Source of the DNA: Nematocida parisii ERTm1
Lineage: Eukaryota; Microsporidia
NCBI RefSeq assembly: GCF_000250985.1
Contig: NW_013524650.1
Coordinates: forward strand, 53,543-117,542
Direction of reading: 5' to 3'
DNA length: 64,000 nucleotides
A program made the translations under genes and the position numbers. Under the pieces are notes generated by a model. The model had not been told where the DNA came from. It saw nothing but the letters and a program-made list of their open reading frames with translations, and did not search any database. Shown here in pieces: positions 45,785 to 48,561 of this stretch. The number at the start of each line of letters is the position of its first letter. The stretch's first letter is position 1.

Positions 45785-46338
45785 ATGTATGATGGAATAA
45801 CACCAGCAAAGAGAAACTTAAATGGACTAAGCCATATAAAACATTCTATAATGAGAATGGCTCGCATGATAGTAAACATTACTAATGACAAAGACGCGTA
45901 CCCATCAATACTCAACTTTTCAACTACTGAGCCTACAGCTGAGAAGAATAAAGAGGAAGACAAGATATCCGAGTTGTCCAACAATATCTCAAATTTATTT
46001 GTGTCTGTGGTGTTTTATGTTTTGACATCAATGTGTACTTTATTGATTACAAAATCAATTAGTTGTGTGGGAGCTGATGCAATGAAGTTCATAACTAATT
46101 TATTGAACAACACTGCATTTGAAAATGAAATAGTATTATCTGCAATTAGTATTTTTGTGACTGCATTTATAGTACAAATCATATTTATGCTATTCAACCT
46201 TAATGCATGGAAAGATTCTATATGCTTAATATATAAGAATTCTAGGAAAAAGATATTAGGTGTAATACTATTTATAATATCAGTATTTACAGGGATGAGC
46301 ATTAATACTGTAGTCTGGATTAGTCTTATTGTAATAAC
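45785..46338 (+). pseudogene. 5' part of a membrane-protein gene interrupted by an LTR element
   Basis: This is the first 184 codons (plus two bases) of a membrane-protein gene: a polar N-terminal region (about 1-70), then hydrophobic segments at about 71-95, 115-140 and 158-184. At 46338 the coding sequence runs into the long terminal repeat. The present frame picks up 11 codons of repeat sequence and stops at 46375. The remainder of the gene resumes in phase at 48309 beyond the element and the duplicated ataac. The family is unknown, and it sits with two other multi-pass genes upstream. The interruption removes the last two hydrophobic segments, so the product is probably non-functional unless the truncated form is tolerated. 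Confidence 0.85.
46334..46338 (+). repeat. target-site duplication, left copy (ataac)
   Basis: Five bases, ataac, immediately before the left repeat; the identical five bases follow the right repeat at 48304-48308. Five-base duplications are typical of LTR-retroelement integrase. Confidence 0.85.
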
Positions 46339-46541
46339 AGTTGTTTTCTTAGGAAAAGGCATTCTTAAACTTTGACTTTTATTGAATTTGTATACGTATT
46401 TATAGACCGTAAAATCAATTTAAATTATGTTGCCATGCTGTGTAACAATAATTTCCGATCTAGTCTGAGCTGTGTCATGTTTATGTAAAACATTACAATA
46501 ACTCATGTCATGCTAACAAATGCTATTCTTAGCATACAACA
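46339..46541 (-). repeat. LTR, left copy (3' LTR in the Gag orientation)
   Basis: 203 bp, identical by eye to 48101-48303. In the Gag orientation it begins TGTTGT and ends ACAACT, a nearly perfect terminal inverted repeat; the TG start is canonical while the end is CT rather than CA. On the element side it is preceded (Gag strand) by CCCAGGGA, a possible short polypurine priming site. Confidence 0.88.
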
Positions 46542-47215
46542 TCCCTGGGCAAACCTTTTGACCACTCGAAAGTTTTCTTATTCCAACTTGAGTTACTTTG
46601 TTTTCAGATTATACCTAGCATTCCTTGCTTCTGATCCTAATCCTTCCACCCTTTTTTTTGTCTCTGTCTTTTCTTTCTTCTATTTTCCTAACCTTTGCTC
46701 ATCCTTATTTTTATTTTTAACATTACCTTTTTTTTTTCTTCCCATCCTATTGGATGCTCGTTAGCTTGTATCTGCTGTTAGTAGTTCCTTACGTGTGAAT
46801 GTGATTCTAGGAAATTTCTAGATAATATTAAACTTACCCCCGGTAGGTTCACTCCCTCCCCTTTGTTAAGCCTTGAACCCCATCCTTCTGTGTTCATCTC
46901 CTTATATTATCTCTCTCTAAATTTCCTTCTTTGGTTCCTTTTGATATCTCTCGATCTTTGTTTCTCTCTTGTCTTCCAATCTGATTCTCTTCCATACGAT
47001 ACTTCTTCCCTACGGTACTTCTTCTCTACAGTCCTTCTCATATCACTCCAGTTCCCATCTGACGTAAGAACTACCCTATCTGACCTCATATTTCTCCTTA
47101 TGCCTTACTTAACTTCTCCTCTGGCCTTCTGCCCTCTTCCGTTCTCGCTTCTGCATTATACTTATTCAGCTCTTGGTAGCTCGTGTTTCCAAAATAGTTC
47201 TCTCTCTCTCTCTCT

Positions 47216-48124
47216 CTAATCTCGCTTCACCTCTTGGGCTGGCTCCATTTTCTCCTGCTTTTTCTGATAGCATTCAGCTTCTATATGTCCCGGCTTACTG
47301 CAATGATAACACGTTTTATTTATGCTCCTAAGCGGACTATTCCCTCTTGAATGAGTCTCTTTCACCTCATTCTTCTTCACTGCTGTCTCCTCCCTATCAC
47401 CTCTACTTAACCTAATTAATTGATCCATGATTGATTCTATTGAACTCTCCCATCTGACATAAGCCCATCCCTTTGGATACTTATTCGCATTCAGTTCAAT
47501 CTCCTGCTGCAACTCTTTCATGGTGTACTCTTTCGCAAACGTGATATAACATAACACTTTACATACCCATAGTTCCCAGCTATTTCCACACTTCCTCACA
47601 TCTGGCACCTCAAATAATTTTCTCTTCCCATATTCAATTATTAACCTTTCTAAATCCCCTTCTACTTCTGTCCATGGTCTTTTCGTTTCAGATATCTTCT
47701 CCTCAATCTCTAAGTCCCTTCCATACTTTTGTATTTGCTTCCTCAAAACGGCCCAATTTGGATTATTCGCAATATCCATTCCTCTATGTACCAACTGTAC
47801 CTTCTCTTTGGCCGAAAGTCTTCCCTTCCTGTCCGCAACGAACCATACATTGTCTAAATCCTCTATAACACTTCTACACGAATTATTAAAGTTCACATTA
47901 TTTCTTATATATTGCATAGCTTTCTCTATAATCCTGTCTACTATTCTTTCTTCTCTACGCTCTGCCGCTAGCTCTGCGTCTATTTCAGAATCTGTGGAGT
48001 CTTCCTCCTCTCTTCTTTTCTTGTACGGAGCTCTTGACTCAGAGTGGCGTAATATATTTTGAAGTTTCTGTTCTTCAGTTAACTCCCTATCTTCATTACT
48101 AGTTGTTTTCTTAGGAAAAGGCAT
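47216..48124 (-). CDS. Gag-like protein with C-terminal zinc knuckle
   Basis: A 302-residue protein. The N-terminus is charged and disordered (about 1-60). Residues about 60-245 are helical and could be a capsid domain with conserved-looking Trp residues. A single CX2CX4HX4C knuckle (Cys272, Cys275, His280, Cys285) lies near the C-terminus, the usual nucleocapsid position. The first eight codons (MPFPKKTT) lie inside the right LTR, so translation starts in the LTR and runs through the expected primer-binding region, as in Ty1-type elements. There is no frameshift into a pol frame. Cellular CCHC proteins are an alternative, but the flanking LTRs make Gag far more likely. Confidence 0.78.
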   Translation of the reverse strand: MPFPKKTTSNEDRELTEEQKLQNILRHSESRAPYKKRREEEDSTDSEIDAELAAERREERIVDRIIEKAMQYIRNNVNFNNSCRSVIEDLDNVWFVADRKGRLSAKEKVQLVHRGMDIANNPNWAVLRKQIQKYGRDLEIEEKISETKRPWTEVEGDLERLIIEYGKRKLFEVPDVRKCGNSWELWVCKVLCYITFAKEYTMKELQQEIELNANKYPKGWAYVRWESSIESIMDQLIRLSRGDREETAVKKNEVKETHSRGNSPLRSINKTCYHCSKPGHIEAECYQKKQEKMEPAQEVKRD

Positions 48125-48303
48125 TCTTAAACTTTGACTTTTATTGAATTTGTATACGTATTTATAGACCGTAAAATCAATTTAAATTATGTTGCCATGC
48201 TGTGTAACAATAATTTCCGATCTAGTCTGAGCTGTGTCATGTTTATGTAAAACATTACAATAACTCATGTCATGCTAACAAATGCTATTCTTAGCATACA
48301 ACA
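48101..48303 (-). repeat. LTR, right copy (5' LTR in the Gag orientation)
   Basis: 203 bp, identical by eye to 46339-46541 and followed by the duplicated ataac. In the Gag orientation it is the upstream LTR, so it should hold the element promoter, and it contains the Gag start codon at 48122-48124. Confidence 0.88.
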
Positions 48304-48308
48304 ATAAC
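48304..48308 (+). repeat. target-site duplication, right copy (ataac)
   Basis: The second copy of the 5-bp ataac, directly outside the right LTR, matching 46334-46338. Confidence 0.85.
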
Positions 48309-48561
48309 CAAGTTTTTTGCAATAAATGACATTATAATGTGCATGGGAATCCCTCAAATATTTGGGTGTGCTTTCATGATCAAAATAGTATATGATATTT
48401 ATCAGAACAAAGCCGGAAAGCGACAGATTTACGAATATATTATTGGTGCAAACTGCGTTGTTATATTTGCGCTCTACATTACATCTATTATATGCAACTT
48501 TGACATTAACAAGACACAAGTAACTGTGTTTATGAAAAAACTCCATGCATACTATACATAG
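48309..48561 (+). pseudogene. 3' part of the interrupted membrane-protein gene
   Basis: From base 48309 the frame that broke off at 46338 continues without a stop to TAG at 48559-48561. It includes two more hydrophobic segments (around the IIMCMGIPQIFGCAFM and NCVVIFALYITSIICN parts) and a polar end, KKLHAYYT. The two parts sum to 807 bases, exactly 269 codons with stop. An ATG at 48337 could allow a 74-residue fragment to be made on its own. Confidence 0.82.

What the first reader, a model, noticed from the sequence alone, without database searches (positions are those of the whole stretch)
46334..48308. Recent gag-only LTR retroelement with identical LTRs and a perfect target-site duplication
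Two 203-bp direct repeats (46339-46541 and 48101-48303, constant offset 1762, no mismatch found by eye) flank 1,559 bp with a Gag-like CCHC ORF and no visible pol. Both outer edges carry ataac. The element has TGTTGT...ACAACT ends in the Gag orientation. A gag-only, non-autonomous LTR element that looks freshly inserted is unusual in a compact microsporidian genome. It implies an active or recently active autonomous partner elsewhere.
Basis: partly seen in the sequence, partly recalled or inferred. Interest (0 to 1): 0.88.

Follow-up and report, generated by a model that had tools for sequence, protein, structure and literature searches.

The report
Fresh gag-only retrotransposon splitting a gene
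In a Nematocida-like (nematode-infecting microsporidian) genome, a 2-kb jumping element that keeps only a gene for a predicted coat protein sits in the middle of a gene that is unbroken in a related species; it likely moved recently by borrowing copying enzymes from another element, yet no enzyme-coding partner with its terminal repeats was found in this assembly.

Summary
Window 46339-48303 is a 1,965-bp LTR element: two identical 203-bp LTRs, a 5-bp target-site duplication (ATAAC), one 302-aa Gag-like frame, no RT or integrase core. It splits a gene whose Nematocida sp. AWRm78 relative is uninterrupted at that codon, so it is a real insertion and very likely recent. Its LTR has 38 further copies in the 3.98-Mb assembly, solo LTRs or fragments; 15 of 38 have perfect TSDs, and two are identical to each other and one base from the window LTRs. 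The internal region is single-copy. Gag is homologous to gag parts of Ty3-like elements in this genome; one (C1:937433-941219) shares the LTR start, the bases before the 3' LTR and a gag start inside the LTR, but lacks the integrase core. Unlike a complete element at C1:37411-40971 (15-nt tRNA-Pro primer site), this lineage shows no tRNA primer site above chance. Best reading: a TR-GAG-like non-autonomous element, likely trans-mobilised. Undecided: persistent gag-only lineage or one-off deletion.

The parts
46334..46338 (.). target-site duplication copy 1 (ATAAC)
   Evidence: read directly; 15 of 38 other LTR copies have perfect 5-bp TSDs
46339..46541 (-). 3' LTR (Gag orientation), 203 bp
   Evidence: 100% identical to the other copy
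46542..46555 (-). polypurine-tract-like end next to the 3' LTR (GGTTTGCCCAGGGA), one mismatch to the same place in the C1:937433-941219 element; also encodes the last residues of an integrase-tail frame (GLPRDVVC*, stop inside the LTR)
   Evidence: role as polypurine tract inferred
46532..46855 (-). probable decayed integrase C-terminal remnant, 4 in-frame stops; firm only for about the last 54 bp before the LTR
   Evidence: tblastn 30.8 bits, best of 60 shuffles 23.1; 21.6 bits without the last 54 bp
46542..47215 (-). 674-bp non-coding internal region, 72.1% purine (highest of 303 control stretches 65.9%), single match in the genome
47216..48124 (-). Gag-like ORF, 302 aa; start codon inside the 5' LTR
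47270..47317 (-). CCHC zinc knuckle (sub-threshold Pfam match)
48101..48303 (-). 5' LTR (Gag orientation), 203 bp; TATAAA 48161-48166, AATAAA 48140-48145
48304..48308 (.). target-site duplication copy 2 (ATAAC)
45785..46338 (+). 5' part of the split host gene (aa 1-182 of P0003, 68% identity)
48304..48561 (+). 3' part of the split host gene (aa 184-265 of P0003, 79% identity)

Best explanation
Window 46339-48303 is an LTR element that encodes only a predicted Gag, of likely Ty3-like ancestry, flanked by a target-site duplication inside a gene that is unbroken in a related species, and it likely moved recently by making its own Gag and borrowing reverse transcriptase and integrase in trans from a pol-bearing element with matching ends. 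Likely steps (inferred): the LTR's TATA-like box drives a short-leader RNA; Gag is translated from the ATG in the LTR and packages that RNA; a partner's RT and integrase copy and insert it, making a 5-bp duplication. LTR-LTR recombination then reduces most copies to solo LTRs. Shown: anatomy, TSD, split gene, solo-LTR family, Gag homology to gag-pol frames, ends shared with a pol-bearing relative. Not shown: expression, particle formation, trans-mobilisation, identity of the partner, how reverse transcription is primed.
For: Identical LTRs and TSD. The gene is continuous across the site in P0003. 40 LTR sequences compared: 38 outside the window, 15 of 38 with 5/5 TSD and 10 more with 4/5; two solos identical to each other and one base from the window LTRs. 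Both window LTRs carry a base (G) where the 37 other copies with a base there carry A, as expected if both came from one template. Gag matches the gag part of other frames in the genome, best at E 2e-35 (C1:937632) and 2.8e-19 at C3:469642; the C3 frame is continuous with RT, and the C1 element has a separate RT-RNase H frame whose best solved relatives are 4ol8 (1.9e-76) and the Ty3 Gag-Pol chain 7q5b (4.6e-76). Shared LTR start, bases before the 3' LTR and Gag start in the LTR with C1:937433-941219. No RT or integrase-core match in the element.
Against: No pol-bearing element with this LTR was found (40 of 49 LTR candidates were scored, so counts are lower bounds). No tRNA primer site or self-priming segment above shuffles. 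The LTR ends in CT, not the usual CA. The full element is single-copy, so repeated movement of the gag-only form itself is not shown. Gag's capsid part matched no Pfam family above cut-off and no solved structure convincingly, and the single-sequence fold was too poor to use.
Confidence: 0.78

Rival explanations
1. One-off deletion derivative: a pol-bearing family member lost its middle during the reverse transcription that made this copy, and it has no further life as a gag-only lineage; the solo LTRs come from pol-bearing relatives.
For: Only one copy with an internal region was found. Its two ends match a pol-bearing relative.
Against: The 674 bp between gag and the 3' LTR resemble the relative's pol only weakly and hold 4 stops in the integrase-tail frame; a fresh one-step deletion should leave an open remnant. 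That signal is weak beyond the last 54 bp (21.6 bits, best of 60 shuffles 23.1). A decayed gag-only relative with LTR remnants seems to lie at C5:47 kb, by a narrow margin (score 44, best of 300 shuffles 42).
Confidence: 0.3
2. Assembly or gene-conversion artefact: the second LTR is a duplicated stretch.
For: Perfect identity of 203 bp.
Against: TSD outside both copies; gene split precisely relative to an uninterrupted relative; solo LTRs with the same ends and their own TSDs; the 302-aa protein is recorded on 3 contigs in a protein collection, though whether these are independent assemblies is not known.
Confidence: 0.03
3. Domesticated Gag gene that happens to be flanked by LTRs.
For: Intact 302-aa frame, single copy; other gag-like frames without convincing LTRs exist in this genome (L011, L012).
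Against: Identical LTRs and an intact TSD suggest it has just arrived; it breaks a host gene; the protein searches, also with a 4-sequence profile, returned only the window's own Gag, so there is no sign of long conservation.
Confidence: 0.04
4. The partner is the complete element at C1:37411-40971, acting across families.
For: It is the only element seen here with gag knuckle, RT, RNase H and integrase in one open frame, identical LTRs and a TSD.
Against: RT only 37% identical to the C1:937 kb RT; LTR ends, LTR length (49 bp) and tRNA-Pro primer site all differ.
Confidence: 0.12

Closest known systems
[quoted passage not shown] plants)
   Same: Two LTRs, one Gag frame, no pol; movement attributed to a related autonomous element (PMC8704663, abstract and passages read; the original Chaparro et al. 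2015 paper was not held)
   Different: Described in plants (the 10 papers are plant papers by title); here a microsporidian, relatives Ty3-like, Gag start inside the LTR, no recognisable primer site, and no intact partner of the same family found
Microsporidian Ty3/gypsy elements (Parisot et al. 2014, PMC4202319, passages read)
   Same: Ty3-type RT relatives in the same genome; 4 LTR families tabulated for N. parisii and 6 for Nematocida sp.
   Different: Those are described as single gag-pol polyproteins; this one has gag only
Ty1 (recalled, not tested)
   Same: Gag start codon within the 5' LTR
   Different: The RT of the relatives here is Ty3-like
TRIM / LARD non-autonomous LTR elements (recalled, not tested)
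   Same: Non-autonomous, LTR-flanked
   Different: Those lack coding capacity; this keeps an open Gag frame

Membership tests
LTR retrotransposon | near-identical direct LTRs | tested here: met
   203/203
LTR retrotransposon | short target-site duplication | tested here: met
   ATAAC on both sides; 15 of 38 other copies 5/5
LTR retrotransposon | TG...CA termini | tested here: not met
   5' TG yes, 3' end CT; the TSDs of the solos place the end at CT. A common, not a universal, feature (recalled)
LTR retrotransposon | tRNA primer-binding site next to the 5' LTR | tested here: not met
   50 of the 53 tRNA genes found were tested; the best match is reached by 7 of 40 shuffles, while the same test found a 15-nt site in the C1:37411-40971 element, reached by 1 of 40
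LTR retrotransposon | polypurine tract before the 3' LTR | tested here: inconclusive
   GGTTTGCCCAGGGA, same place and one mismatch in the C1 relative
TR-GAG | LTR pair with a single GAG frame and no pol | tested here: met
TR-GAG | related autonomous element of the same family | tested here: inconclusive
   relative with shared ends at C1:937433-941219 has no integrase-core match; none with this LTR found
Ty3/gypsy lineage | RT groups with Ty3 | tested here: inconclusive
   the element has no RT; a relative's RT matches the Ty3 Gag-Pol chain 7q5b at 4.6e-76, second only to 4ol8; no tree was built
active element | transcription and new insertions observed | not testable with these tools
   no expression or population data

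The most novel reading that the evidence does not exclude
A persistent gag-only retrotransposon lineage in a compact microsporidian genome: its Gag is kept open by selection in cis while the rest of its coding remnant decayed, it repeatedly inserted and collapsed to solo LTRs, it outlived every intact pol of its own lineage in this genome, and it primes reverse transcription without the usual tRNA site.
Probability: 0.25. Interest if true: 0.72.

Novelty: new variant of a known kind. Interest (0 to 1): 0.5.

Why it matters
The gag-only LTR elements that I found in print are from plants. A fresh one in a 4-Mb parasite genome, with a countable set of copies and very few pol genes, is a small system in which to ask whether a retroelement can live on its own Gag plus a borrowed pol. 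It would also show recent retrotransposition breaking a gene in a compact genome.

Tried and rejected
Autonomous copy with the same LTR: none found. Internal remnants beside the solo LTRs: 35 loci, 150,515 bases, no protein match at E 0.01; two weak DNA matches at E 0.096 only. Insertion next to tRNA genes as in Ty3 (recalled habit): 1 of the 35 solo loci holds a tRNA gene, and the window none. tRNA primer site and self-priming: none above shuffles; self-match reached by 40 of 40 shuffles for the window element and 32 of 40 for C1:937 kb. LTR remnants around the gag-like frames: C5:47 kb stands out narrowly (44; best of 300 shuffles 42); C1:407 kb no (30 of 300 reach it); C3 no (110 of 300); C1:85.7 kb 1 of 300, but one of five control loci gave 2 of 100, so not trusted. 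Gag homologues elsewhere: only the window's own protein. Plasmid records: no match, but records near the window's genome may be left out there. Structure: mean pLDDT 42.9, no fold search run. Solved structures with the Gag profile: mostly nucleocapsid knuckles, best E 0.093. Literature: gag-only terms gave no paper; 'TR-GAG' with three other terms gave 10, plant papers by title; one search added an Ectocarpus paper in which the term stands only in the reference list; a search on non-canonical LTR ends gave no paper; 'transpos' does not occur in the main text of the Nematocida genome paper PMC10393165 (section 6 read).

Full report
OBSERVATION. The two 203-bp repeats, their positions, offset, perfect identity, ATAAC duplication and the 302-aa minus-strand frame are all as described. 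With 0 differences in 203 bases the 95% upper limit on LTR divergence is about 1.5% (rule of three); no clock is available, so no date is given.

THE SPLIT GENE. The plus-strand frame 45785-46375 runs into the LTR and takes its last residues from it. Besides the window's own product, the protein search returned one relative at E 0.001: P0003, 265 aa, named for Nematocida sp. AWRm78 (its cluster also bears a NEIRO02 name). Residues 1-182 of P0003 match the stretch before the insertion (68%), residues 184-265 the stretch after it (79%). The element therefore interrupts a gene that is whole in a related species. Of 33 solo LTRs with both ends, 4 lie in a stop-free run of at least 120 codons, against 51.4% of 1,000 random positions in the same loci; three of those 4 have only 9 to 13 codons on one side, the fourth 61. 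The window copy has 201 codons upstream and 83 downstream. A mid-gene insertion is thus exceptional in the family, as expected for one that selection has not yet removed.

THE FAMILY. The LTR has 42 matches in the 3.98-Mb, 11-contig assembly (lower bound, 40 of 49 candidates scored). From the 43 rows of the local search of the fetched loci I kept 40 stretches of over 120 bases and dropped 3 shorter ones. Of the 38 outside the window, 15 have a perfect 5-bp TSD, 10 have 4 of 5, and 13 have fewer (5 of these 13 are truncated). Distance to the window LTR ranges from 0.005 to 0.240; 8 of 38 are printed at 0.050 or less. The two closest, at C2:211178 and C3:431457, are identical to each other, have different perfect TSDs, and differ from the window LTRs at one base, where the window LTRs carry G and the 37 other copies with a base there carry A. 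Both window LTRs share that private base, as copying from one template predicts. Three fetched loci (L034, L050, L060) hold two LTRs each: opposite orientations in L050 and L060, and in L034 a same-orientation pair that differs greatly and has separate perfect TSDs, so none looks like a second full element. In the 35 solo loci (about 2 kb on either side as a rule) no gag or pol protein match was found. The FastTree topology is ladder-like around the window copy, which fits one evolving source lineage, but support is uneven.

RELATIVES. The Gag search gave 8 rows: the window itself, C1:937632 (31%, E 2e-35), C1:407300, C1:85758, C3:469642, two rows of one decayed copy at C5:47 kb, and a weak one at C6:54149 (E 0.0037). 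At C3 the gag-like part is continuous with RT in one long frame. At C1:937433-941219, between LTRs of about 216 bp that differ at 5 positions, lie a 395-aa gag frame whose ATG is also inside the LTR, an RT-RNase H frame and an integrase-tail frame; no integrase-core match lies there. Its LTR has only one further match in the genome, C3:178080, 87%. Its TSD is not clean: the 5 bases on the two sides differ. That element and the window element share the LTR start (83% over 46 columns), a TATA-region stretch (73% over 51), and the 14 bases before the 3' LTR with one mismatch; in both the integrase-tail frame would end ...KGLPRDVVC with its stop inside the LTR. In the window element the frame above these last residues has 4 stops. 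So the window element is best seen as a pol-less derivative of this lineage. Similarity to the integrase tail is firm for about 54 bp and only suggestive further in (30.8 bits in all, 21.6 without the last 54 bp, best of 60 shuffles 23.1).

PARTNER. RT occurs at 6 places and integrase-core matches at 4, two of them under the family's cut-off; each is more than 10 kb from every listed LTR match. Against the C1 RT the C3 frame is 60% identical and ends in the integrase N-terminus, without LTRs that I could detect; C4:348 kb is 50% with one stop in the matched stretch; C1:38487 37%; C6:167090 32%; C6:54782 29% with four stops. The only complete element seen is C1:37411-40971 (identical 49-bp LTRs, TSD TTTAT, gag knuckle, RT, RNase H, integrase zinc finger and core). 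Its LTR is followed by a 15-nt exact complement of the 3' end of a tRNA-Pro, with CCA added by my script (1 of 40 shuffles reach it), which also shows that the primer-site test works. The same test finds nothing above shuffles for the window element (7 of 40 reach its best), the C1:937433 element (37 of 40) or the C1:407 kb frame (38 of 40); 50 of 53 tRNA genes were tested. How this lineage primes is open.

MECHANISM AND LIMITS. Best reading: Gag made from the element packages its own RNA, and RT plus integrase come in trans from a pol-bearing element not in this assembly, lost, or of another family. Steps from anatomy (TATA-like box, AATAAA, ATG in LTR, polypurine-like end) are inferred. The main rival is a one-off deletion with no future. 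The decayed integrase-tail frame beside an open gag frame argues that the pol-less form is older than this insertion, and so that Gag was kept; that argument rests on a weak alignment and I give the persistent-lineage reading 0.25.

KNOWN KINDS. By anatomy it meets the TR-GAG description used in PMC8704663 (abstract and passages read): LTRs and a single GAG frame; that paper reports one such element transposing in Arabidopsis ddm1. Parisot et al. 2014 (PMC4202319, passages read) list 4 LTR families in N. parisii and 6 in Nematocida sp., and describe the microsporidian Ty3/gypsy elements as one polyprotein. I saw no report of gag-only elements in microsporidia in the listings or in the passages read of PMC4202319 and PMC13174016; that covers open-licence PMC papers only. 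The species of the window was not determined; 'Nematocida-like' rests on one protein match.

Noticed in passing
G000:C1:37411-40971 (L018, L023): Complete Ty3-type element with identical LTRs of only 49 bp, TSD TTTAT, exact 15-nt tRNA-Pro primer site, and one long gag-pol-integrase frame whose start codon lies in the LTR.
   Followed up: partly
G000:C3:469534-472869 region (L013, L072): Open frame of over 1,000 codons with gag-like part, RT and RNase H, ending in the integrase N-terminus, with no detectable LTRs; decayed or perhaps retained by the host.
   Followed up: partly
G000:C1:85758-86339 (L012): Gag-like domain fused to a tail of 9-bp repeats, no convincing LTRs; possible domesticated Gag.
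   Followed up: no
G000:C5:46.9-48.5 kb (L014): Decayed gag-only relative with apparent LTR remnants about 1,366 bp apart (narrow margin over 300 shuffles), on the same contig about 50 kb from the window element.
   Followed up: partly
G000:C8:150243-152324: Two paralogues of the split host gene (27% identity) with a 96%-identical solo LTR of the same family between them.
   Followed up: no
window 45785-46375 (P0002): The truncated host protein is recorded on 5 contigs, the longest 394,255 bp, but the Gag protein on only 3, the longest 101,016 bp: some other assembly may hold a solo LTR or another allele at this site.
   Followed up: no
window 47200-47219: A CT/GA microsatellite at the end of the gag frame.
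   Followed up: no
L052/L054 and L059/L061: Pairs of LTR copies share similar flanking bases, pointing to duplication of the locus after insertion.
   Followed up: no
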